Below, piece after piece: positions 1,386 through 48,165 of a stretch of 48,165 bases of DNA. How positions within the stretch are numbered: the first letter of the stretch is position 1; every line of letters begins with the position of its first letter. This DNA comes from Patescibacteria group bacterium (GTDB lineage Bacteria > Patescibacteriota > Patescibacteriia > Magasanikbacterales > UBA922): NCBI GenBank assembly GCA_028687045.1, contig JAQUAW010000006.1, forward strand, positions 1 to 48,165. The letters are read 5' to 3'. Below the pieces are notes generated by a model. It had not been told where the DNA came from, made no database searches, and saw only the letters and a list, made by a program, of their open reading frames with translations. A program made the translations under genes and the position numbers.

Positions 1386-1430
1386 GAAAAAGAAAAATTT
1401 TGGATGAATAAATTATACATAAAAAACAAA

Positions 1431-1459
1431 AACACTCTCTAGATGAGAGTGTTTTTTTA
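1431..1459. terminator. Bidirectional rho-independent terminator
   Basis: AACACTCTC (1431-1439) pairs perfectly with GAGAGTGTT (1445-1453) over a 5-base loop. T runs flank it on both strands, as fits its place between the convergent EndoQ-like and histone-like genes. Confidence 0.85.
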
Positions 1460-1474
1460 TTGATAAGAAAAATA

Positions 1475-1648
1475 TTATTTTTTCTTAGCAGCTTTACGTT
1501 TAGCTGGTTTCTTAGCAACTTTTTTCTTAGCTACTTTTTTAACCGCTTTTTTAGCAACTTTTTTCTTAGTAGCTGGTTTCTTTTTAGCAACTACTTTTTT
1601 CTTAGCTACTGGTTTACGTTTAGCTGGTGATTTCTTTTTTGCTGGCAT
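1475..1648 (-). CDS. Lys/Ala-rich histone H1/Hc1-like DNA-binding peptide
   Basis: The product is about 57 residues made almost only of K, A, V, P and R in repeats such as KKVAKKPAKRKAAKKK, like the tails of histone H1 and the small chlamydial/bacterial H1-like proteins that coat DNA. It has no globular domain, so nucleoid binding is inferred from composition. The ATG at 1648 is preferred over an in-frame GTG at 1657 because a strong AAGGGGG Shine-Dalgarno sequence lies 8 bases before that ATG, one of the best ribosome sites in the window and a sign of high expression. The mRNA leader holds two hairpins (1705-1769). It ends in the bidirectional terminator at 1431-1459. Confidence 0.8.
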   Translation of the reverse strand: MPAKKKSPAKRKPVAKKKVVAKKKPATKKKVAKKAVKKVAKKKVAKKPAKRKAAKKK

Positions 1649-1704
1649 AAATTTCACCCCCTTCTTTTATTTAGTTATTTGATGTTCACTTTGACGTGAC
1701 CATG

Positions 1705-1769
1705 GTACACACCAAAATAATTTTTGTGTACATCTTTTAAGATTTTACATGACAAGCATCGATGTAAAA
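1705..1769 (-). promoter_or_regulatory. Two hairpins in the leader of the histone-like gene
   Basis: GTACACA (1705-1711) pairs with TGTGTAC (1725-1731), and TTTTACAT (1743-1750) pairs with ATGTAAAA (1762-1769). Both would lie in the 5' leader of the minus-strand histone-like mRNA, about 60-120 bases before its start. No convincing promoter was seen. A regulatory role is only a suggestion. Confidence 0.4.
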
Positions 1770-2005
1770 ACTTTTTATATTTTTTTGAAAAAAAATATTA
1801 CGACCTTTCATATGATAAGTATAATTTGTTTTGCTATTTTTTGAAATAGATTTTTTAAAAAAACTGTGTATAACTTTTTTATTTTTTATTTTGAATATTT
1901 TTTTTAATAAATAAAAAATTATTTTTATAAATATTTTTATATAGTATAATATTGTTGTAATACATAATTTTTTTGTATGTGCTAGGTAATTTATTTAAAA
2001 TAAAA
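1770..2005. other. Extremely AT-rich gap with no gene
   Basis: This part of the 1658-2056 gap is almost all A and T, with long A and T runs and several TATAAT-like strings (for example 1945-1950) that are expected by chance in such sequence. I see no open frame, tRNA or long repeat in it. Confidence 0.5.
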
Positions 2006-2036
2006 AAATCATCAACAGTGTTGATGATTTTTTTTT
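2006..2036. terminator. Rho-independent terminator after the HD gene
   Basis: AAATCATCAAC (2006-2016) pairs with GTTGATGATTT (2020-2030) in a perfect 11-base stem with a 3-base loop. A/T runs on both sides let it work in either direction; it most likely ends the minus-strand HD-domain gene. Confidence 0.85.
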
Positions 2037-2056
2037 AGATATTTTAAAGTTTTATT

Positions 2057-2797
2057 TTAATTTGATGTAGCATAGCTAATGCTGTTCATCTCGATGACGT
2101 TGTTTAATCTATTTTCAAGTTGGAACATAGTTTTTTCCAACCATTCTTTTCCAAAATTTTCTACATGCCACAAATAAATTTCTGTTTGTGAAAGCCAAGC
2201 AATAAAATTTTTGATAGTCTCTTCAATATATATTCTAGCTTCAATAGTTTTCATTTCCAAAATATTGGTATGAAGATTGAACCAGATCAATGTGCGGAAT
2301 TTTCGTAAATTGGCTTTGGACATCTGAGCTAAGTGTCCAGCTTCATAAAAACGTTGGATATTTAGGACATCCATCATGTCGGCGTCTTTTAGTAGATTCA
2401 AAAGTATTTTGGTTCTTTTGTCAGCAAAAATTTTTGTCATAAATTTGCCTGTCATCATACCACTACACATGAGTATAAAAAAAGTTTTCATCATGACACT
2501 ACTTACTACACGATAGCGAACAGCATAGAAAAGTAAGGCAAAGGCTGATAAGTTGTCATCAAAAAATGCCATCCAAATCATAGAAGGTCTATTTGATAAA
2601 GCGCGACTAGCATCATGCCACCAGGCAGCTAGTTCTAGGGCATCTCTTTCTTTTTGACTTAGTTTGATATTTTGTGAAATTTTTTTTGTGTTTTCAACTA
2701 CTCTTTCAACGTGGCGCAAATCATGAAGAGGATCAAAAGAATGGCTCATTTGTTTTTGAGCTTCGGCTATAAGTGGTTTGATACTGTTTGTGAACAT
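2057..2797 (-). CDS. HD-domain phosphohydrolase-like protein
   Basis: The N-terminal half carries the HD metal-site signature: His in HDLRHVERV (about residue 28), the HD pair in WWHDASRAL (about residue 62), and a later Asp in LKDADMMDVL. HD proteins hydrolyse phosphoester bonds in nucleotides or related molecules; the substrate here is unknown. A hydrophobic stretch near residues 80-115 (LLFYAVRYRVV... FFILMCSGMM) is unusual for a soluble HD enzyme and could be a membrane contact. The gene follows the tRNA-Ile locus on the same strand and ends in the terminator at 2006-2036. A TGN-TATAAT box at 2853-2858 would give it its own leader of about 50 bases. Confidence 0.75.
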   Translation of the reverse strand: MFTNSIKPLIAEAQKQMSHSFDPLHDLRHVERVVENTKKISQNIKLSQKERDALELAAWWHDASRALSNRPSMIWMAFFDDNLSAFALLFYAVRYRVVSSVMMKTFFILMCSGMMTGKFMTKIFADKRTKILLNLLKDADMMDVLNIQRFYEAGHLAQMSKANLRKFRTLIWFNLHTNILEMKTIEARIYIEETIKNFIAWLSQTEIYLWHVENFGKEWLEKTMFQLENRLNNVIEMNSISYATSN

Positions 2798-2852
2798 AAA
2801 TATTTTTTGTAGATGAAATGTTTATTTTTTACAATATAAGATTTACATTCCT

Positions 2853-2861
2853 ATTATAACA
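2853..2861 (-). promoter_or_regulatory. Extended -10 promoter for the HD gene
   Basis: On the minus strand TGT precedes TATAAT (plus 2853-2858), an extended -10 element about 55 bases before the HD-domain start. No good -35 is visible. Confidence 0.45.
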
Positions 2862-2890
2862 TTTTTTGCTGTTTTTTTGTATTCCTCATT

Positions 2891-2995
2891 CCTACTTTCG
2901 TAGGTTAGGATGGACTTCCTGCCTGTCGGCAGACAGAGAACTATCAACCCCAACGTTATATCCCGATGTTATCGGGACTAACTACTGAGCTATTT
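2891..2995 (-). pseudogene. Decayed tRNA-Ile copy A with two palindromic inserts
   Basis: Read on the minus strand, this repeats parts of the intact tRNA at 3027-3100: AGCTC, the TATAACGTTGGGG anticodon-arm half, the T-arm start, CCATCCTA and the following CCTAC-GAAA-GTAGG hairpin. The D-stem/anticodon 5' half is replaced by the palindrome TCCCGATGTTATCGGGA (2961-2977). The T arm is split by a second palindromic stretch (about 2918-2937, CTGCC...GGCAG). The 5' acceptor half is lost. It cannot fold as a tRNA. Confidence 0.75.
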
Positions 2996-3026
2996 TATTA
3001 AGTTTGATTTTGTATTCCTACTTTCG

Positions 3027-3100
3027 TAGGCTAGGATGGACTTGAACCATCGACCCCAACGTTATAAGCGTTGTGCTCTAACCAACTGAGCTACTAGCCC
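3027..3100 (-). tRNA. tRNA-Ile (anticodon UAU)
   Basis: The minus strand folds as a 74-base tRNA: acceptor GGGCTAG/CTAGCCT (one G-U pair at the end), D stem GCTC/GAGC, anticodon stem CAACG/CGTTG with loop CTTATAA, variable GGGTC, T stem GATGG/CCATC with loop TTCAAGT, and discriminator A. The anticodon UAU reads AUA; most bacteria read AUA with a lysidine-modified CAU tRNA, so a genome-encoded UAU anticodon is a minor but real feature. CCA is not encoded. A CCTAC-GAAA-GTAGG hairpin with a GNRA-type loop overlaps the 3' end. Confidence 0.92.
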
Positions 3101-3116
3101 TAATAAAATAAAACTA

Positions 3117-3183
3117 ACTTTTGAACTATTAACCCAACGTTATATCCCGATGTATCGGGACTAACAACTGAGCTACTAGCCCT
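3117..3183 (-). pseudogene. Decayed tRNA-Ile copy B with palindromic insert
   Basis: The minus strand begins like the intact tRNA (GGGCTAGTAGCTCAGTTG-TTAG). The D-stem 3' half and anticodon-stem 5' half are then replaced by the palindrome TCCCGATACATCGGGA (3145-3160). TATAACGTTGGG and a degenerate T arm follow, and the acceptor 3' half is missing. Confidence 0.75.
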
Positions 3184-3188
3184 CTTAA

Positions 3189-3254
3189 TTGAACCATCGA
3201 CCCCAACGTTATATCCCGATGTTATCGGGACTAACCTGCTTGAGCTATTGGCCC
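3189..3254 (-). pseudogene. Decayed tRNA-Ile copy C with palindromic insert
   Basis: The minus strand reads GGGCCAATAGCTCAAG...GGTTAG, then the palindrome TCCCGATAACATCGGGA (3214-3230), then TATAACGTTGGGGTCGATGGTTCAA. The break points match copies A and B. The acceptor 3' half is missing. It is the first element after the promoter at 3284-3312. Confidence 0.75.
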
Positions 3255-3283
3255 TTTATTTTTTCAAGAAAATTAACAAATAG

Positions 3284-3312
3284 ATTATAGCAGAATACCC
3301 TTGATTTTTCAA
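3284..3312 (-). promoter_or_regulatory. Near-consensus promoter of the tRNA locus
   Basis: Minus-strand TTGAAA (plus 3307-3312), a 17-base spacer and TATAAT (plus 3284-3289). Transcription would start near 3277 and run through tRNA copies C and B into the intact tRNA-Ile. Its -35 abuts the -35 of the divergent promoter at 3301-3329. Confidence 0.8.
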
Positions 3313-3329
3313 GTCTAATAGGGTATAAT
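3301..3329 (+). promoter_or_regulatory. Promoter of the pseudouridine synthase operon
   Basis: TTGATT (3301-3306), a 17-base spacer and TATAAT (3324-3329). The start codon at 3340 lies only about 4 bases after the expected transcription start, so the mRNA should be nearly leaderless. Confidence 0.8.
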
Positions 3330-3339
3330 CGTTCTACCT

Positions 3340-4320
3340 ATGAAAAATACTAAAAATACACAAATTTATCAAGTACCAGAAGAAGCTCGTCATGATCGTC
3401 TGGATGTTTTTTTGGCTCTACAAATGGGAATTAGTCGTTCCCAAGTACAGAAGCTTATTAGTTCAAATCAAGTAAAAATGGACGGTAGAGAACCTAAGAA
3501 ATCTGGCGAAAGATTGACTTCTGCCAAACAAATAGAGGTACAAATTGAAAATTTAGAAAAAAAAGCTAGTGAAAAAAAGGCTAAAGCTAAAAAATTACCA
3601 AAATTGGATGTTGTAGCTGAAACTGATGAATATATTATTGTAAATAAACAATCTGGAATTTTGGTTCATCCGACACAGGCTGGAGAGATAAATACCTTGG
3701 TAAATATGCTTTTGGCTAAATATCCAGAAATAAAAGATGTTGGTGAAGCAGAAGTCAGACCTGGTATTGTGCATCGTCTAGATAGAGAAGCTTCTGGTTT
3801 GTTGGTTGTCGCACGTACACAAAAAAGTTTTGAAAATCTAAAACAACAATTCAAAGATAGAGATGTAGACAAAATATATAGTGTGCTTGTTTATGGACAT
3901 TTGCCACAAGATCATGGTCAAATAGATTTTGAGATTGACAGGGGTGGCGATGGACGTATGGTTTCTCGACCTAAGATTGATAAAATGAAATTAAGGAATG
4001 TCTCAAAAATTCAAGATGGCAAGGAAGCTTTGACTGAATATTGGGTAGAAAAAACATTTAAGAGATTTACTTTGTTAAAAATAAAAATCCATAGTGGACG
4101 TACTCACCAAATTCGTGTGCATATGTTTGCGCTAGGTTGTCCTGTTGTTGGTGACAATCTTTATTTCAACAAAAAATTGCAAAAGAAGAGTGAGCAAGAA
4201 TTAAATAGATTATTTTTGCATGCCAAGCATTTGGAATTTACTGATTTGCAAGGTGTGCGTGTAAGTTTTGACAAAAATATTCCAAAAGTTTTGAAAGATT
4301 ATTTGGAGAGTTTAGTATAA
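3340..4320 (+). CDS. RluA/RluD-family 23S rRNA pseudouridine synthase
   Basis: An N-terminal S4 RNA-binding domain (about residues 12-70, RLDVFLALQMGISRSQVQKLI) is followed by the RluA catalytic domain, with the catalytic Asp in HRLDREASGLLVVAR and the later RTHQIRVHMFALGCPVVGD motif. Such enzymes turn uridines of rRNA into pseudouridine; which uridine cannot be read from sequence. A Lys-rich insert (about residues 70-90) links the domains. At 326 residues the length is normal. It heads a group with the guanylate-kinase-like gene (8-base gap) and L19, which suits a translation/growth operon. Confidence 0.9.
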   Translation: MKNTKNTQIYQVPEEARHDRLDVFLALQMGISRSQVQKLISSNQVKMDGREPKKSGERLTSAKQIEVQIENLEKKASEKKAKAKKLPKLDVVAETDEYIIVNKQSGILVHPTQAGEINTLVNMLLAKYPEIKDVGEAEVRPGIVHRLDREASGLLVVARTQKSFENLKQQFKDRDVDKIYSVLVYGHLPQDHGQIDFEIDRGGDGRMVSRPKIDKMKLRNVSKIQDGKEALTEYWVEKTFKRFTLLKIKIHSGRTHQIRVHMFALGCPVVGDNLYFNKKLQKKSEQELNRLFLHAKHLEFTDLQGVRVSFDKNIPKVLKDYLESLV

Positions 4321-4328
4321 GAAAAAAT

Positions 4329-4919
4329 ATGGACAAACTTTACCCTATTATCATCATCTCTGGTCCTTCTGGAGCAGGGGAAGACAGTATTATAAATGCG
4401 TTAAAGGAGAGACTGGATATAGAGAGAGTGCTCACGACTACTACTAGAGAAAAAAGGCCAGAAGAGAGTGAAGGTAATCCTTATTATTTTTTGACTAAAG
4501 ATAAATTTGAAGATTTGTTGGCAGAGGACAAAATGTTTGAACATGCAATTCAGTACGACAATTATTACGGTGTGACCAAAGAGGAAATAAAGAGGGTGAG
4601 AAATAGTGGAAAAGTAGGTGTTCTAAAGTTGGATCTGCAAGGTATTCAAACTTTACAAAAGAGAGGTGACAAGGGCTTCATCAGTATATTTGTGTCGGCT
4701 CCTGTAGAACAACTGGAAAAGAGGGTAAGAAATAGAGATGGTAGGAGTGAAGAATATATTCAAGATAGAATGGAATACGCTAAAAAATGGCTAAAATATA
4801 AGGATATCTATGATTACCAGGTAGAAAACCTGGATGGAAAATTGGACAAAGCTATAGAGGAGACAGAAGCTATCATCAACAACGTTTTGTCTCTTGACAA
4901 AAAGGGCTTTATTGTGTAG
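4329..4919 (+). CDS. gmk: Guanylate kinase-like protein with altered P-loop
   Basis: The family is clear from the P-loop region (SGPSGAG), TTTTREKRPEESEGNPYYF (GMP-binding, Arg and Tyr residues), YYGVTKEEI and the LDLQG motif. The enzyme normally phosphorylates GMP to GDP with ATP. In the P-loop the invariant Lys of GxxGxGKS/T is Glu here (GPSGAGEDS, Glu18), so normal ATP phosphate binding is in doubt. Either a nearby Lys/Arg compensates, or this is a divergent paralogue. Length (196 aa) is normal and the rest of the fold looks intact. It sits 8 bases after the pseudouridine synthase gene. Confidence 0.8.
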   Translation: MDKLYPIIIISGPSGAGEDSIINALKERLDIERVLTTTTREKRPEESEGNPYYFLTKDKFEDLLAEDKMFEHAIQYDNYYGVTKEEIKRVRNSGKVGVLKLDLQGIQTLQKRGDKGFISIFVSAPVEQLEKRVRNRDGRSEEYIQDRMEYAKKWLKYKDIYDYQVENLDGKLDKAIEETEAIINNVLSLDKKGFIV

Positions 4920-38388: not shown

Positions 38389-39525
38389 ATGTTGAGAGAA
38401 GGTTCTCCTGAAATAGGAATAGAAATAGAAAGGGATAAAGAAAAAATATTAAAATGTTTGAAAGATTTGTACGAACTGGATGATTTTTTGAGTTCGGATG
38501 AATTTTTTACAGGAGCAGAATCTTTTTTGGATAATTTACCATCAGATGGTGTAATAGACTCTGCACGTATTGCTGTGATGGAAGTCATCAAAAAAGATGT
38601 TGGTTTGAAAAAACATTTTGAGCACGATGTGACAACTTTGGCTACTACAGTATTGGGTAACTTACGTTTATTAGAAAAGAAAAAAGGGGAAGTGCCTTAT
38701 AAAACAATAGAATTTTTACAAAAAAATTGGTCTAGATTCTTTGTATCTGTAGAAGATTTGTTGCTTAGAGCTTTACCAGATTCTGATGTCAAAGAGAATG
38801 CCAGAAATTTTACAAAATTACAGACTTTACATCGTGTAATGGAATATTTTGTTAGCACTGAGTTTAAAAGTCTAAAAGAGAAATCAATGAGTCTTTCAAA
38901 AGAAGTTAATCCTGGAACTGAGATTAAAATAGATTCTGATCTTCGTTCTATTTTACAAAGAGAAAATCATTATGATGGTATAGAAAATAGGGAATTGAAT
39001 GTGATTGCAGATTGGAATGAATTGGAACGTAAATTAGCTGGCCGTCAAATTGTTATGGATCAAGGTGTTTTATTGAATTTTATATTAAATGCAATTCGTA
39101 ACCCTTTGAAAAAAGCCATTGAAGTCGCAGGTAAACATACTAATATAAGAGTAGAAATAAAAATTGTAGGAGAAGAATTGCTAGTAAAAATATCGGATAC
39201 TGGTAAGGGAATGGAAGATAAACACTTGGACCCTAATGATCCTAGTTGTATATTTAACAAAGGAGCAAGTAGCACCAATAGTACAGGGCTTGGTCTGACA
39301 AATTTTCAAAATAGATTTAGGATTTTTGGAGGTAAGTTGGAAGTTTTTTCTAGGCGTTATCCAAGTAATGAAATGGACGACACCCCCTTTGTTTATTATA
39401 GTAACTACGGGGAAAAGGAAGTTAATTTTACATTTTATTCAGGTGGAGATGCCAAAGAAATAGTTCAAAGCCAAATAGATGATCATGGTACAGAATTCAC
39501 ATTGCACGTACCTTTGGTAGTCTAA
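38389..39525 (+). CDS. Orphan soluble histidine-kinase-like ATPase
   Basis: The C-terminal half is a GHKL/HATPase_c domain: N box NFILNAIRNPLKKAIEVAG, G1 box VKISDTGKGMEDKHL, F/G2 region CIFNKGASSTNSTGLGLTNFQNRF. A possible phospho-acceptor helix lies near residues 78-95 (KHFEHDVTTLATTVLGNLRLLE, with an HD pair as in DHp domains). No membrane helix, sensor domain or response regulator gene is seen. It starts 4 bases after valS and so is probably co-transcribed with it. A 45-residue insert (RRYPSNEMDD... to SGGDAKE) splits the end of the ATPase domain. A kinase role is inferred; another GHKL function is possible. Confidence 0.75.
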   Translation: MLREGSPEIGIEIERDKEKILKCLKDLYELDDFLSSDEFFTGAESFLDNLPSDGVIDSARIAVMEVIKKDVGLKKHFEHDVTTLATTVLGNLRLLEKKKGEVPYKTIEFLQKNWSRFFVSVEDLLLRALPDSDVKENARNFTKLQTLHRVMEYFVSTEFKSLKEKSMSLSKEVNPGTEIKIDSDLRSILQRENHYDGIENRELNVIADWNELERKLAGRQIVMDQGVLLNFILNAIRNPLKKAIEVAGKHTNIRVEIKIVGEELLVKISDTGKGMEDKHLDPNDPSCIFNKGASSTNSTGLGLTNFQNRFRIFGGKLEVFSRRYPSNEMDDTPFVYYSNYGEKEVNFTFYSGGDAKEIVQSQIDDHGTEFTLHVPLVV

Positions 39526-43108: not shown

Positions 43109-44203
43109 ATGTTGTATAAAAAAATACTTCGCCCAATTTTATTTAAAACTGATCCAGAAAAAATACATCATTTTGTTATCAATATGTTGGGCGCCATTAG
43201 TGTTGTGCGTCCTTTTTATTTTTTGATTAAAAAATTTTTGTTTATTGATGATCCTCGTTTACACGTGAAGCTTGGAAATATTGAATTGAAAAATCCTGTT
43301 GGCTTATCAGCAGGCTTTGACAAAGATATTACTGCACCATTGGCCTATCCGATGCTTGGTTTTGGTTTTGCAGAGCTTGGGTCAATTACCAATTCAGCTC
43401 AACCAGGTAATCCTAAGCCAAGATTATGGCGTTTACCAAAAGATAATGGTCTTATCGTTTACTACGGTTTGTCCAATTGTGGTAGTCTAGAAGCAGCTAG
43501 AAAAATTAAGAAAAAAATGCAAAAACGTGATATTCCTTATGGCATTAGTATTGCGGTGACCACAGGTTTGGAAGGAAAAGAAATGGCAGATGATTATGTC
43601 CGTTCATTTTTGGATTTGTATGAGTTGGCTGATTATATTACCTTAAATGTTAGTTGTCCGAATGTTGCTAAGTGTGATGTTTTTGCTCAAGTTTCTTTTA
43701 TAGAAGAACTTTTGCAGAAAATTATGAATATTGTTTCCGCCCAAGGCGGACCAGTATTCTCTGGAAAAAAAATAAAGAAAGATATTTTCATCAAGATTGG
43801 ACCAGACATGAGTTATGAAGATTTGGACAAGGTGATAGATTTGTGTTTGAAATATGAGATTACGGGTATTGTGGCAACTAATCTGATAAAAAATAGATCT
43901 TGGGTCAAAAAATTTGAATCATCTCCTGAACAGTTGAATCATCCTGGTGGAATTTCTGGCAAACATTTGCAAGATAGAAGTAACAAAATAATTAGTCATA
44001 TCCGTGAACGAGCAGGAGACAAATTAAAAATCATTGGGGTTGGTGGAATTTTTACAGCAGAAGATGTTTATGTTAAAATGAAAGCAGGTGCTGACGCTGT
44101 GCAAATGATTACAGGTTTTATTTACGGTGGACCTTTGACTATTAGAAAGATTAATAAAGGTTTATTAAAAATTTTGGAGGATAAAGAACAGATTAAAAAT
44201 TAA
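43109..44203 (+). CDS. pyrD: Dihydroorotate dehydrogenase, class 2-like
   Basis: The N-terminal helical part (LFKTDPEKIHHFVINMLG) is that of quinone-linked class 2 enzymes. The FMN barrel motifs follow: NPVGLSAGFDKD, GFGFAELGSITNSAQPGNPKPRLWRL, LNVSCPN, FIKIGPDMSYEDL, GIVATN, HPGGISGKHL, GVGGIFTAEDVYVKMKAGADAVQMITGFIYGGP. It oxidises dihydroorotate to orotate in pyrimidine synthesis. The usual INRMGFNN segment reads IVYYGLSNCG, an odd change near the substrate. An in-frame palindrome (43736-43750) adds residues near SAQGGP. No other pyrimidine gene is nearby; the ThiF gene follows after 8 bases. Confidence 0.9.
   Translation: MLYKKILRPILFKTDPEKIHHFVINMLGAISVVRPFYFLIKKFLFIDDPRLHVKLGNIELKNPVGLSAGFDKDITAPLAYPMLGFGFAELGSITNSAQPGNPKPRLWRLPKDNGLIVYYGLSNCGSLEAARKIKKKMQKRDIPYGISIAVTTGLEGKEMADDYVRSFLDLYELADYITLNVSCPNVAKCDVFAQVSFIEELLQKIMNIVSAQGGPVFSGKKIKKDIFIKIGPDMSYEDLDKVIDLCLKYEITGIVATNLIKNRSWVKKFESSPEQLNHPGGISGKHLQDRSNKIISHIRERAGDKLKIIGVGGIFTAEDVYVKMKAGADAVQMITGFIYGGPLTIRKINKGLLKILEDKEQIKN
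43736..43750 (+). repeat. 15-base palindrome inside pyrD
   Basis: TCCGCC-CAA-GGCGGA lies in frame in pyrD and encodes about five residues (SAQGG) in a variable loop. It is the exact reverse complement of the intergenic copy at 5415-5429. Confidence 0.8.
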
Positions 44204-44211
44204 TTTTTTTT

Positions 44212-45300
44212 ATGATAATTTTAAAAGAGAATATTGAAAAAATAGAGACATTAAAAAAAGAAGGTGTGATTTTTTGTGACAATCTGCAAGAACAATTGGA
44301 AGAATTGTGTGAAATAAAAAATCCAATATTAAGAGATGACAAAGAAAAAATGGCAGAATTGAAAAAGACTTTTGTTTTTGAAAATAAAGATAAATTTGTT
44401 TATTTTTATATACCCGAAAGAAGAAGTTGTCATAAAATTTTGTTAGAGAATGATTATTTTGAATTAAGAACGGCTAGAAATAAAAATCTTATAACTTTGG
44501 AGGAACAAAATAAATTTCGTGAAGCAAAAGTATGTTTTGCTGGTCTTAGTGTTGGTAGTAATATGCTTAGACTTTGTGCTTTACAAGGTGGCCCAAAAAA
44601 TATCAATATTGCTGATATGGATGTATTGGGGCTTAGTAACTTAAATAGAATTTTAGCTGGTGTACATGATTTGGGTAAAAAAAAGACAGAAGTAGTTTCT
44701 GAATATCTTTATGAAGTAGATCCTTATTTACAAATAAATTTATTTAGTGATGGTATAAACGAAAAAAATGTTGAAGATTTTATTAGAATAAATGGTGAAG
44801 TAGTAGATGTTATAGTAGATGAAGTAGATGATATCAAGTCAAAAATAGCTTTGCGTCAAATGGCTGATAAATATAAAAAACCTTTGATAAGTGTAGCTGA
44901 CAATGCTGATGGTGTGATTATTGAAGTTGAAAGGTATGACCAAGATTTTACCTTTGGGATGTTTGCTCAGAGATTAGAAATTTTGAAAAAATTTGGTAAT
45001 CCTCAAGAAATGACTATTGAGGCTAAAGCTAAAGCTATTACACATTTTATTGGTATTGAAAATATTGATACAGATATGTTAATTTCAGTGTCAGAAGTTG
45101 GTAAAAATCTTTATTCTTGGCCACAGCTTGGTGGAGCAGCTGTTTTGTCTGGTGTGGTAGGATCTTATCTTATAAGAAAAATAGTTAATGGTAGTAATAT
45201 AAAAAGTGGTGTTTATCTATTTTCTTTAAAAGATCTTTTTGATTTAGAAAATGAAGAAGAAAAAAAGAAAAGAGAAAATATTTTAAAATTCTTTAATTAA
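44212..45300 (+). CDS. ThiF/E1-like adenylyltransferase family protein
   Basis: After an N-terminal domain of about 100 residues, the E1/ThiF Rossmann fold starts with AKVCFAGLSVGSNMLRLCALQGG (nucleotide loop GLSVGS, 111-116), then INIADMDVLGLSNLNRI (Asp and the Asn/Arg pair used with ATP) and VIVDEVDDIKSKIALRQMA. ThiF-like enzymes adenylate a C-terminal carboxylate of a carrier or peptide. No zinc CxxC pair and no clear catalytic Cys is seen, and no small ubiquitin-like carrier gene is adjacent. It lies between pyrD (8 bases) and the ammonia-lyase (20 bases), in a group that probably makes or modifies a small molecule. Confidence 0.85.
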   Translation: MIILKENIEKIETLKKEGVIFCDNLQEQLEELCEIKNPILRDDKEKMAELKKTFVFENKDKFVYFYIPERRSCHKILLENDYFELRTARNKNLITLEEQNKFREAKVCFAGLSVGSNMLRLCALQGGPKNINIADMDVLGLSNLNRILAGVHDLGKKKTEVVSEYLYEVDPYLQINLFSDGINEKNVEDFIRINGEVVDVIVDEVDDIKSKIALRQMADKYKKPLISVADNADGVIIEVERYDQDFTFGMFAQRLEILKKFGNPQEMTIEAKAKAITHFIGIENIDTDMLISVSEVGKNLYSWPQLGGAAVLSGVVGSYLIRKIVNGSNIKSGVYLFSLKDLFDLENEEEKKKRENILKFFN

Positions 45301-45320
45301 TTGAAAATTAATTTTATATT

Positions 45321-46928
45321 ATGGATTCTGAGTTTTTGTTTTTAACAGGGGAGGGACTTGGTGTAAACGAAGTACATGAAGTAGCTTTTGGTCTTAGAAA
45401 AGTGCAAATTGCAGAGGAAGCAAAAAAAAGAATAATTGAATCACGTGAAATGTTGGATTTATGGGTGGATGAAGAAAAAATAGTTTATGGTATCACTACA
45501 GGTTTTGGACCTTTGGTTTCTGTATTAATACCAAAAAAACATCAGAGTGATTTGCAAGAAAATCTTATTAGAAGTCATTCTTCAAATGTAGGACCTCTTT
45601 TTTCCAAAGAAGAAGTTAGGGCTGCGATGTTACTTCGTATCAATGCTTTTTGCAAGGGTTATTCGGCTATCAGGTTGGAAACAGTAGAATTGATGGTAGC
45701 TATGCTTAATAAAGGTTTGCATCCTTGTGTACCTCAATTTGGTTCTGTAGGTGCTAGTGGAGATCTTACACCTTCATCACATATAGCTTTGTCACTCATG
45801 GGTGAAGGTAAGACAGAGTATCAAGGTGAAATATTAGATACCAAAGAGGCTTTGAAAAAAACAGGTTTAGAACCTGTTAAACTCATGGCTAAAGAAGGAT
45901 TAGCTCTTATCAATGGTACTACTATGATGACAGGTGTAGCAGCTTTGCAGGTTTATGATACTTGGAATCTGATTAGAACAGCTGAGGCTATAAGTGCTTT
46001 GTCTATTGAAGTTTTGTTGGGTTCTATTGAACCATTTTTGGTTAGAGCACATGAACTTGCCAAACCACATCCAGGACAAATAAATACTGCTTATAATCTT
46101 AGTGAAATGTTGAAAGATAGCAAATTGATTTGGACAAAGGAGAAATTAAAAGAAATTCAAGAAAAATTACAAAATACTGTTAAGGAAAATGGCAATGTAA
46201 CAGATAGTAGTATTCATGTTCAAAATGTTTATTCTCTTCGTGCTACGCCACAAATTTTGGGAGCAGTACGTGATGCTTTGGATTATATAACTAGACAAAT
46301 TACCACAGAGATGAATTCTGCTAATGACAATCCTTTGTTTTTCAAAGATATGGATATGGTTTACCAGGGTGCACATTTTCATGGACAACCAGTTGCTATG
46401 CCAATGGATATGTTGTCAATTTCTTTGACTGAAATAGCTATTCTTTCTGAAAGAAGATTAAACAAAATGTTGGATAGAAAAAGAAGTGAAGGTCTGACAC
46501 CTTTTTTAGCAGGAGATAAATTTGGTCTTCGTTGTGGTTTTGAAGGAGCACAATATATACCAACATCTTTGGTAGCTGAGTGTCGTACTATGTGTGTGCC
46601 TGCTTCTATACAATCTATCCCTTCAAATGAAGAAAACCAAGATGTAGTTAGTATGGGACTTGTGGCTGCACGTAAAGCAAGAGATATCAAAGAAAAAATA
46701 TCTTATGTTTTGTCTGTAGAACTTTTGGTAGCTTGTAATGCTGCAGAAGAAAGAGGTATTGAGAATCTGTCTTCTGTTGGTAAAAAAGTTTATGATCTTG
46801 TTAGAGCAGATATTTCAAAATATGATGAAGATAGACAAATGTCTTTAGATATTGAAAAAATGAATTCCTTAATTAAGGAAGGTTCAATTGTTACTGAAAT
46901 TAAAAAGATTATTCCAGACTTAAAATAA
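45321..46928 (+). CDS. MIO-type aromatic amino acid/histidine ammonia-lyase
   Basis: The self-made MIO cofactor triad Ala-Ser-Gly lies at about 145-147 in GSVGASGDLTPSSHIALSLMGEG. The catalytic Tyr56 is in VYGITTGFGPL, with EGLALINGTTMMTG, NSANDNPLF and NQDVVSMG as further family motifs. It removes ammonia from an amino acid to give an acrylate. Selectivity is mixed: Ser85-His86 (NLIRSHSSNVG) is the pattern of histidine ammonia-lyase, but NQDVVSMG is that of tyrosine/phenylalanine lyases and MIO aminomutases (HutH has NQEDHVSM). No other hut gene is present. The 535-residue length is normal. The PaaK-like gene follows after 4 bases. Confidence 0.9.
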   Translation: MDSEFLFLTGEGLGVNEVHEVAFGLRKVQIAEEAKKRIIESREMLDLWVDEEKIVYGITTGFGPLVSVLIPKKHQSDLQENLIRSHSSNVGPLFSKEEVRAAMLLRINAFCKGYSAIRLETVELMVAMLNKGLHPCVPQFGSVGASGDLTPSSHIALSLMGEGKTEYQGEILDTKEALKKTGLEPVKLMAKEGLALINGTTMMTGVAALQVYDTWNLIRTAEAISALSIEVLLGSIEPFLVRAHELAKPHPGQINTAYNLSEMLKDSKLIWTKEKLKEIQEKLQNTVKENGNVTDSSIHVQNVYSLRATPQILGAVRDALDYITRQITTEMNSANDNPLFFKDMDMVYQGAHFHGQPVAMPMDMLSISLTEIAILSERRLNKMLDRKRSEGLTPFLAGDKFGLRCGFEGAQYIPTSLVAECRTMCVPASIQSIPSNEENQDVVSMGLVAARKARDIKEKISYVLSVELLVACNAAEERGIENLSSVGKKVYDLVRADISKYDEDRQMSLDIEKMNSLIKEGSIVTEIKKIIPDLK

Positions 46929-46932
46929 TTTT

Positions 46933-48165
46933 ATGTATGATTCCTATGAAAAACTTTCAGCTGATTTGAAGACAAAACCAGCTGATTTTTGGGTTAAAAA
47001 AGGGGAAGAATATGCTTTGGAATTGTTTCATAGAGCTGCTGAAAAGGTACCAGCTTATCAAGATTTTTTATCCAAAAATTCAGTAGATCATAAAAAAATT
47101 ATTACGATAGAAGATTTTAAAAGTGGGGTTCCTGTTATTGATAAGGAGAATTATATTTATAAATATAGTTTGAGTGAATTATGTTGGAATGGAGATGTCA
47201 CTCAAAGTTCACTAATATCCCAAAGTTCTGGCACAACTGGTAGTCCTCATTTTTGGCCACGTTTTGCTAAATATGACAAGGATTTAAAATTAGTGCATGA
47301 GGTTTTTTTTAAAGATTTGTATAATACCGATAATAAAAAAACCTTATTTATAGTTTGTTTCTATTTGGGTGCACATATTGCTGGAGTAGTTACTGCTAAT
47401 GCAGTAAGAGATATTTTGTCTGATGGAATGAGAGGGTCTATAGTAACAGCAGGTATAAATAAAAAAGATATTTTTAGTACAATAAATAAATTGTCACCTT
47501 TATTTGATCAGACAATCTTGATGGGCTATCCTCCATTTTTACGTGATATCATTTTAGATGGTAAAAATGATGATGTGGGTATAGATTGGGAAAAAATAAA
47601 TTTGAAATTCATGTTTTCAGCTGAGTCTTTTCCAGAAAATTGGAGAGATAATTTATACAAAAATTCTGGGATAAATAATTTTTTACAAAGTGGCTTTAAT
47701 GTTTATGGTTGTTCAGAGGTTGGGTTCATGGGACATGAAAGTGAATTTACTATCAAATTGAGAAAATTTTTGGAGAATAATTCAGAATCTAGAAGTTTAT
47801 TTGGTTTGGTAAATGGTTTTGTGCCTGCTATATATCAATATCATCCTTGGAATAAATATTTTGAGTCAATAAACAATCATTTGGTTTGTACTTCTGACAA
47901 TGGTTTACCTCTAATTAGGTATGATATAAAAGATATAGGGGTTGTTTATAAAACAGATGAAATTAAAGAAAAATTTTCAAGTAAAATAGATATGGGAAAT
48001 ATTTGGAATTTACCAATTATTACCGTTTTTGGTAGGAGTGATTATACCGCCACTATTTATGGAGTTAATGTATATCCTGAACATATCAAAGCTGTAATAG
48101 CCAAAGATAATTTTATAAATTTGATTGGTGATAAGTTTTTTTTGAAAACAGTTTTTGAGAAGGGC
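46933..48165 (+). CDS. PaaK-like (phenylacetate-CoA ligase family) adenylating enzyme, partial
   Basis: Translation from the ATG at 46933 stays open to the window end (411 codons). ANL-superfamily motifs are clear: SQSSGTTGSPHFWPR (ATP loop), YGCSEVGFMGHESEF, LPLIRYDIKDIGVVY and FGRSDYTATIYGVNVYPEHI (A8-like hinge). It should activate a carboxylic acid as an acyl-adenylate, and perhaps pass it to CoA or a carrier. The acrylate made by the upstream lyase is a plausible substrate; that is inference from order. The C-terminal end is outside the window. Confidence 0.85.
   Translation, partial: MYDSYEKLSADLKTKPADFWVKKGEEYALELFHRAAEKVPAYQDFLSKNSVDHKKIITIEDFKSGVPVIDKENYIYKYSLSELCWNGDVTQSSLISQSSGTTGSPHFWPRFAKYDKDLKLVHEVFFKDLYNTDNKKTLFIVCFYLGAHIAGVVTANAVRDILSDGMRGSIVTAGINKKDIFSTINKLSPLFDQTILMGYPPFLRDIILDGKNDDVGIDWEKINLKFMFSAESFPENWRDNLYKNSGINNFLQSGFNVYGCSEVGFMGHESEFTIKLRKFLENNSESRSLFGLVNGFVPAIYQYHPWNKYFESINNHLVCTSDNGLPLIRYDIKDIGVVYKTDEIKEKFSSKIDMGNIWNLPIITVFGRSDYTATIYGVNVYPEHIKAVIAKDNFINLIGDKFFLKTVFEKG

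What the first reader, a model, noticed from the sequence alone, without database searches (positions are those of the whole stretch)
43109..48165. Possible biosynthetic cluster: PyrD, ThiF/E1-like, MIO ammonia-lyase and PaaK-like ligase
CPR bacteria usually lack secondary metabolism. Here four genes lie head to tail with gaps of 4-20 bases. A lyase could make an aryl- or imidazolyl-acrylate, the PaaK-like enzyme could activate it, and the ThiF-like enzyme could adenylate a further carboxylate. Ammonia-lyase plus acyl activation recalls aryl polyene/flexirubin starter formation, but no ketosynthase is seen before the window ends. The downstream genes are likely to be decisive.
Basis: partly seen in the sequence, partly recalled or inferred. 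Interest (0 to 1): 0.78.

Follow-up and report, generated by a model that had tools for sequence, protein, structure and literature searches.

The report
Signal-making operon beside its sensor kinase
In a tiny uncultured bacterium, a row of enzymes that probably builds a small molecule from an aromatic amino acid is followed by a membrane sensor whose sensing half has been swapped in evolution together with those enzymes, which suggests a chemical communication system that recurs, in variants, across many lineages of these bacteria.

Summary
The four genes are real, with gaps of 8, 20 and 4 bases. The contig ends inside the PaaK-like gene, but the same genome continues on contig C47: the rest of PaaK, a flavin oxidase (nitroreductase superfamily) and a 7TM sensor histidine kinase (HK). 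There is no hut pathway or ketosynthase in the genome.
PaaK, ThiF, oxidase and 7TM HK form a conserved cassette across more than 20 named CPR lineages: ThiF in 40/41 and a downstream HK in 39/41 loci with full context, against 8/469 background genes. A lyase or an amino-acid dehydrogenase often precedes PaaK, never both. ThiF plus oxidase is the known oxazolone machinery (OxzB, TyzBC, TrzS); the acyl-CoA-dependent N-acyltransferase is missing, and a PaaK-like ligase stands there instead.
The strongest result: within the genus the HK kinase half is 83-89% identical but the sensor half only 18-32%, wherever the enzyme module differs. With the same module, sensors often stay 56-92% alike even between genera. 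Other HKs of the same genomes show no such split.
Best reading: a modular, quorum-sensing-like pair of signal synthase and receptor making an aryl-acyl amino acid, possibly an oxazolone. Chemistry and signalling are inferred, not shown.

The parts
43109..44203 (+). PyrD-like dihydroorotate dehydrogenase; conserved flanking gene, not clearly part of the pathway
   Evidence: 87-91% identical in G000, G001 and G003 whatever module follows
44212..45300 (+). ThiF/E1-like adenylating enzyme of the Rv1355c/TrzS type, proposed ATP-dependent cyclase; conserved G111, D137, N143/N145, R146, K158, D206; no conserved Cys
45321..46928 (+). MIO-type aromatic amino-acid lyase/aminomutase (nearest: tyrosine 2,3-aminomutase); A145-S146-G147, Y56, H86, N198, Y304, R307 and N439-Q440-D441 present
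46933..48165 (+). PaaK-like adenylate-forming ligase, first 411 aa; the last 78 aa are at C47:1-237 of the same genome (locus L110), followed there by flavin oxidase 239-1294, 7TM histidine kinase 1426-3057, bactofilin 3148-3633 and DAGK-like 3709-4470

Best explanation
The operon ThiF-lyase-PaaK-flavin oxidase-7TM histidine kinase is a synthase-plus-receptor unit. Proposed steps: (1) the MIO enzyme converts an aromatic amino acid, most likely tyrosine, to an arylacrylate or beta-amino acid; in sister cassettes an amino-acid dehydrogenase does the equivalent deamination. (2) The PaaK-like enzyme adenylates the resulting acid and joins it to an amino acid, in place of the acyl-CoA-dependent N-acyltransferase of known oxazolone pathways. 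(3) ThiF adenylates the carboxylate and closes a ring (oxazolone or related). (4) The flavin oxidase of the nitroreductase superfamily desaturates it. (5) The product is the ligand of the 7TM domain of the adjacent histidine kinase, whose kinase half feeds a conserved output. Shown here by sequence: gene content and order, conservation of the cassette, and joint replacement of enzyme module and sensor domain. Inferred: every chemical step, the product, its release, and its role as a signal between cells.
For: Cassette: ThiF 40/41, oxidase 33/41, same-strand HK downstream 39/41 in CPR loci with full context; background HK 8/469 genes; 31 of 32 scanned HKs carry HisKA_7TM. Same locus in the family and near relatives: without a module, argS abuts bactofilin and the HK is gone too (G009, G012, G017, G058, G061); in other genomes the HK sits behind a different enzyme: a 349-394 aa protein with no family match (G001, G014), a methyltransferase-like one (G006, G016, G025), or AdoMet decarboxylase + transporter-like + ATP-grasp (G024). 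Mosaic HK: G000 v G001 sensor 18-25%, kinase 89%; G000 v G004 27-32% and 83%; same-module pairs keep their sensors: G003-G004 89%, G053-G065 92%, G004-G035 60%, G001-G014 56%, G006-G016 62%. Label permutation: sensor +13.8 points for same module, p=0.0002; kinase -2.9, p=0.97. Control: two other HKs of G000 and G001 keep 65% (sensor region) and 90% (whole) identity. Chemistry precedents: ThiF + oxidase = OxzB/TyzBC/TrzS (PMC10404671, PMC12856293); nearest solved ThiF relatives are tRNA t6A dehydratases, which close an oxazolone ring (own knowledge). Ligase model matches PaaK, NatL2 and plant GH3 acyl-acid amido synthetases. No ketosynthase, CoaE or PF13444 acyltransferase in the genome.
Against: No experiment. 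Over deep distances sensor and PaaK identities do not correlate once kinase identity is allowed for (r=0.04, p=0.36, 23 cassettes). The sensors of G000 and G021 are only 22% identical although both have ThiF-lyase-PaaK (their oxidases belong to different subgroups). Some ELFV2 pairs (G004-G020, G035-G020) and most ELFV pairs also have divergent sensors (24-41%). Module classes were assigned by me after seeing the data. Known desaturations of this type use O2, whereas many CPR are thought to be anaerobic. No exporter is identified in the cassette. Lyase/dehydrogenase exclusivity is suggestive only (0 both, 20 and 6 alone, Fisher p=0.08). The join C11-C47 is inferred from reading-frame and protein continuity; the contigs share no overlap.
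Confidence: 0.62

Rival explanations
1. An ordinary specialised-metabolite cluster (oxazolone or N-acyl amino acid with lipid-like or antimicrobial role) whose HK monitors the product only for feedback or self-protection; no communication between cells.
For: The characterised relatives (tyrazolones, tryptazolones, stieleriacines) have no proven signalling role; stieleriacines alter biofilm composition and are described as antimicrobial.
Against: In the family the HK persists while the enzyme modules are chemically unrelated, and sensor domains are exchanged with the modules while the kinase stays, as expected of ligand-receptor pairs with changing specificity.
Confidence: 0.2
2. The product targets the partner organism on which CPR cells live (manipulation or host sensing); the HK reads the same molecule or host-modified forms.
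For: CPR are thought to be mostly episymbionts; orphan signal synthases for host manipulation have been proposed for CPR (PMC7567580).
Against: Near-constant pairing with its own HK (39/41) favours self-sensing.
Confidence: 0.1
3. Aryl polyene/flexirubin-like pigment starter formation.
For: Lyase and PaaK-like ligase together; FlxA-like lyase in Doudnabacteria cassettes.
Against: No ketoacyl-synthase domain in a 95.6% complete genome; downstream genes are oxidase and HK.
Confidence: 0.01
4. Histidine degradation (HutH) with unrelated neighbours.
For: The lyase passes the HAL subfamily model PRK09367 (543 against a cut-off of 524 bits).
Against: hutH equivalog below cut-off (532.7 against 539.15), tyrosine aminomutase model above; NQD instead of QED; no urocanase; conserved linkage to PaaK.
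Confidence: 0.02
5. E1-like protein-conjugation or anti-phage defence system.
For: Weak E1-E2 model matches of the ThiF domain (best 38 bits).
Against: No E2, JAB or ubiquitin-like partner noticed in the cassette; no defence match for the lyase, ligase or oxidase; no conserved Cys in ThiF.
Confidence: 0.02

Closest known systems
Oxazolone pathways OxzAB (Pseudoalteromonas rubra), TyzACB and TrzAS/Rv1356c-Rv1355c (M. tuberculosis)
   Same: ThiF cyclase next to or fused with a flavin oxidase; ThiF-oxidase fusions also occur in CPR cassettes (654-733 aa)
   Different: No N-acyltransferase of the AHL-synthase fold; a PaaK-like ligase and a lyase or dehydrogenase instead; linked to a 7TM histidine kinase, where TrzAS neighbours c-di-GMP genes
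Synthase/sensor-kinase adjacencies predicted in CPR (CqsA, LuxI, PpyS homologues; PMC7567580)
   Same: Putative signal synthase beside a sensor kinase in CPR
   Different: Different enzymes; the words ThiF and oxazolone do not occur in that paper, and sensor swapping was not found in the passages read
ComQXPA of Bacillus
   Same: Signal-making genes next to a histidine kinase whose membrane sensor half is variable and whose cytoplasmic half is conserved (PMC4008528)
   Different: ComX is a modified peptide; here the modules are small-molecule enzymes of unrelated families
Flexirubin/aryl polyene starter enzymes (FlxA, FlxY)
   Same: MIO lyase plus acyl-activating ligase
   Different: No ketosynthase; FlxY match only 22 bits
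Plant GH3 acyl-acid amido synthetases and PaaK-family ligase NatL2
   Same: Adenylate-forming fold; GH3 enzymes join an acid to an amino acid through an acyl-AMP (own knowledge)
   Different: 13-19% identity; activity of the CPR enzyme unknown

Membership tests
Oxazolone biosynthesis (Oxz/Tyz/Trz) | ThiF cyclase of the TrzS/TyzB group with ATP-site Asp | tested here: met
   Best model Rv1355c family, 220.7 bits over residues 10-355 (below the full-fusion cut-off 476); D206 invariant in 54 homologues
Oxazolone biosynthesis (Oxz/Tyz/Trz) | Flavin-dependent oxidase of the nitroreductase superfamily | tested here: met
   C47:239-1294, Acg-family model 150.8 bits (cut-off 199), weak to the oxidase half of Rv1355c; the G021 counterpart scores 174 bits to that half
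Oxazolone biosynthesis (Oxz/Tyz/Trz) | N-acyl amino acid transferase of the AHL-synthase/FeeM type | tested here: not met
   No PF13444 match in the genome and none in the cassette; present only in the unusual arrays of G119
Oxazolone biosynthesis (Oxz/Tyz/Trz) | Oxazolone product | not testable with these tools
   Needs chemistry
Quorum-sensing system | Signal synthase genetically linked to a receptor | tested here: met
   HK downstream in 39/41 loci; HisKA_7TM in 31/32; that the enzymes make a signal is inferred
Quorum-sensing system | Receptor sensor co-varies with synthase | tested here: met
   Within the family: with control; not detectable at deep distances
Quorum-sensing system | Released molecule and density-dependent response | not testable with these tools
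   Needs experiment
Flexirubin/aryl polyene | Ketosynthase | tested here: not met
   PF00109 absent
Flexirubin/aryl polyene | Acyl carrier protein | not tested
   Not searched
Histidine ammonia-lyase/hut | HAL-specific Glu (QED) and urocanase | tested here: not met
   NQD at 439-441; no PF01175
PaaK phenylacetate-CoA ligase | PaaK fold | tested here: met
   AlphaFold model of the G021 orthologue, pLDDT 89.8, Z about 28 to PaaK1/PaaK2
PaaK phenylacetate-CoA ligase | Curated PaaK equivalog score | tested here: not met
   43 bits against a cut-off of 646 (the window protein is truncated)
MIO tyrosine 2,3-aminomutase | Curated equivalog score | tested here: met
   551.7 bits, cut-off 501; mutase versus lyase activity cannot be told from sequence

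The most novel reading that the evidence does not exclude
CPR bacteria carry a widespread, modular signalling system in which chemically unrelated small-molecule synthase modules (aryl-acyl oxazolone-like, methyltransferase-type, ATP-grasp type and others) are exchanged at a fixed locus together with the sensor half of one conserved 7TM histidine kinase, giving new classes of autoinducers that need neither fatty-acid synthesis nor CoA.
Probability: 0.4. Interest if true: 0.92.

Novelty: new variant of a known kind. Interest (0 to 1): 0.8.

Why it matters
How CPR bacteria talk to kin or hosts is largely unknown, and the suggested role of oxazolones as signals is an open speculation in the literature (PMC12856293). 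This locus offers natural enzyme-receptor pairs with conserved kinase halves, so both questions become directly testable with receptor chimeras and a handful of purified enzymes, without culturing the organism.

Tried and rejected
Extending the contig failed because it ends at 48165; a family search of the own genome found the continuation on C47. The first PaaK alignment was too divergent for a collection scan; a narrower one worked. PaaK found no relative in phages. A Mantel test of sensor against PaaK over 23 distant cassettes gave nothing. Aryl polyene, hut, and E1-type defence or conjugation readings were tested and set aside. Lyase/dehydrogenase exclusivity did not reach significance. 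The four other class-level lyase hits (G047, G100, G112, G127) have no PaaK/ThiF beside them. The HK model (pLDDT 82, pTM 0.53) was not searched because its kinase half would dominate.
Full report
Observation. The window holds PyrD-like, ThiF-like, MIO-type and PaaK-like genes head to tail at 43109-48165 with gaps of 8, 20 and 4 bases. The window is the whole contig C11 of a 1.15-Mb genome, 95.6% complete, so nothing follows on that contig. A search of the same genome with the Rv1355c family model found a second piece on contig C47. C47 opens in frame with the missing 78 residues of a PaaK-like protein, matching the place where the orthologue in G021 goes on, followed by a flavin oxidase (239-1294), a 543-aa sensor histidine kinase with an N-terminal 7TM region (1426-3057), a bactofilin and a DAGK-like gene. 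The contigs share no overlap, so the join is an inference, but G021 runs uninterrupted ThiF-lyase-PaaK-oxidase-HK-bactofilin-DAGK and G022 lyase-PaaK-oxidase(-ThiF)-HK-bactofilin-DAGK. A record matching G021's contig by length is named Candidatus Magasanikbacteria, so the window genome, in the same family, very likely belongs to that lineage.

The lyase. Its best curated model is tyrosine 2,3-aminomutase (551.7 bits, cut-off 501), and the best solved relatives are tyrosine aminomutases. The MIO triplet A145-S146-G147 and residues Y56, H86, N198, Y304 and R307 are conserved in the aligned homologues. Position 440 is Gln (N-Q-D), as in the other cassette enzymes, whereas two non-cassette relatives (G100, G127) have Q-E-D; the Glu of QED is the HAL signature (own knowledge). 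There is no urocanase in the genome. Tyrosine is the likeliest substrate; lyase versus mutase cannot be told. In Doudnabacteria cassettes the lyase belongs to a different branch, nearest FlxA tyrosine ammonia-lyase but below its cut-off, and only 34-37% identical to the window's, so lyases seem to have been recruited more than once.

ThiF and oxidase. The ThiF-like protein is closest to the ThiF half of Rv1355c. D206, R146 and K158 are invariant and D137 nearly so in 54 homologues, and no Cys is conserved. Rv1355c is TrzS, which closes and desaturates N-acyl tryptophan to an oxazolone (PMC12856293); TyzB and TyzC do the same for tyrosine as separate proteins (PMC10404671); stieleriacine producers have the same pair (PMC12479983). 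In several CPR cassettes the two are fused (654-733 aa). The known systems also have an N-acyltransferase. Here no PF13444 acyltransferase is found, the genome lacks CoaE and ketosynthases, and a PaaK-like adenylating enzyme is present in the cassette instead. The AlphaFold model of the G021 orthologue matches PaaK, NatL2 and plant GH3 acyl-acid amido synthetases. I infer that it makes an acyl-AMP and joins it to an amino acid; this is not shown.

A cassette across CPR. PaaK-like relatives occur in 29 of 144 related genomes and in 135 stretches of the genome collection, of which 80 loci were read, 68 of them CPR or unnamed bacteria in more than 20 named lineages. In the 41 loci with full context ThiF is present in 40, the oxidase in 33, and an HK on the same strand within five genes downstream in 39; one of the two exceptions (L177) has its HK one gene further on. 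The background rate is 8 in 469 genes. Of 32 such HKs scanned, 31 carry HisKA_7TM. An amino-acid dehydrogenase or a lyase often lies next to PaaK, never both (20 and 6 of 56; Fisher p=0.08), which suggests that both feed the same step. The 11 cyanobacterial loci counted have PaaK without ThiF, oxidase or HK beside it. Loci are related by descent, so these counts are not independent trials.

Module exchange. In Magasanikbacteria and near relatives the cassette sits between argS and bactofilin/DAGK. Five genomes without it have neither cassette nor HK there. Six others keep the HK but have another enzyme in front of it: an unclassified 349-394 aa protein (G001, G014), a methyltransferase-like protein (G006, G016, G025), or AdoMet decarboxylase, a transporter-like protein and an ATP-grasp enzyme (G024). 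Between the window genome and G001, same genus, flanking proteins are 74-92% and the HK kinase half 89% identical, but the sensor half only 18-25%, with a sharp break near residue 280, after the last membrane helix. G000 and G004 show the same (27-32% against 83%). Where the module is shared, sensors often stay alike, even between genera (G001-G014 56%, G004-G035 60%, G006-G016 62%; close pairs 89-92%). Permuting module labels over 18 loci gives p=0.0002 for the sensor and 0.97 for the kinase. As a control, two other HKs shared by G000 and G001 keep 65% (sensor region, kinase 82%) and 90% (whole) identity. This pattern resembles ComP of ComQXPA, where the N-terminal sensor is far more variable than the cytoplasmic half (PMC4008528).

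Limits. The module classes were made after looking at the data. The two lyase cassettes G000 and G021 have unlike sensors (22%) and different oxidase subgroups, and many dehydrogenase cassettes also differ (24-41%), so module class does not map one to one on sensor type. Over deep distances no co-variation is seen. Nothing shows the product, its release, or a response. Known desaturases of this kind use O2.

Comparison. A 2020 survey already proposed quorum sensing in CPR from homologues of known synthases, with CqsA, LuxI and PpyS homologues beside sensor kinases (PMC7567580). The searches I made found no report of ThiF/PaaK/lyase cassettes in CPR or of module-and-sensor exchange; the library holds open-licence papers only. 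The authors of the tryptazolone paper note the likeness of oxazolones to acyl-homoserine lactones. I therefore rate it a new variant of a known kind, with high interest because pair and specificity can be tested directly.

Noticed in passing
L104 (G119:C2:58000-77900): Repeated array of FeeM/exosortase-type N-acyltransferases, short ThiF proteins, methyltransferases and one PaaK-like gene, with 7TM histidine kinases between them: looks like several synthase-receptor modules in tandem, some with the canonical acyltransferase.
   Followed up: partly
window 38389-39525: Protein with a HATPase_c domain between valS and tyrS (378 aa), with relatives at the same place in G003, G020 and G074; possibly part of the same signalling relay.
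   Followed up: no
L194:4597-5781, L197:3859-4908: Unclassified 349-394 aa proteins (36-38% identical) with no Pfam or NCBIfam match, standing directly before the 7TM kinase: candidate new signal synthase.
   Followed up: partly
L199:7614-10842: AdoMet decarboxylase, transporter-like and ATP-grasp genes before the kinase in G024: another candidate module, possibly polyamine-derived.
   Followed up: no
L129, L145, L147, L148, L152, L157, L159, L164, L172, L176, L179: Cyanobacteria hold 34-38% identical PaaK-like proteins without the other cassette genes nearby; function unknown.
   Followed up: no
window 43109-44203: A quinone-type PyrD lies directly before the cassette in several Magasanikbacteria and stays when the module changes; why it is there is unclear.
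   Followed up: partly
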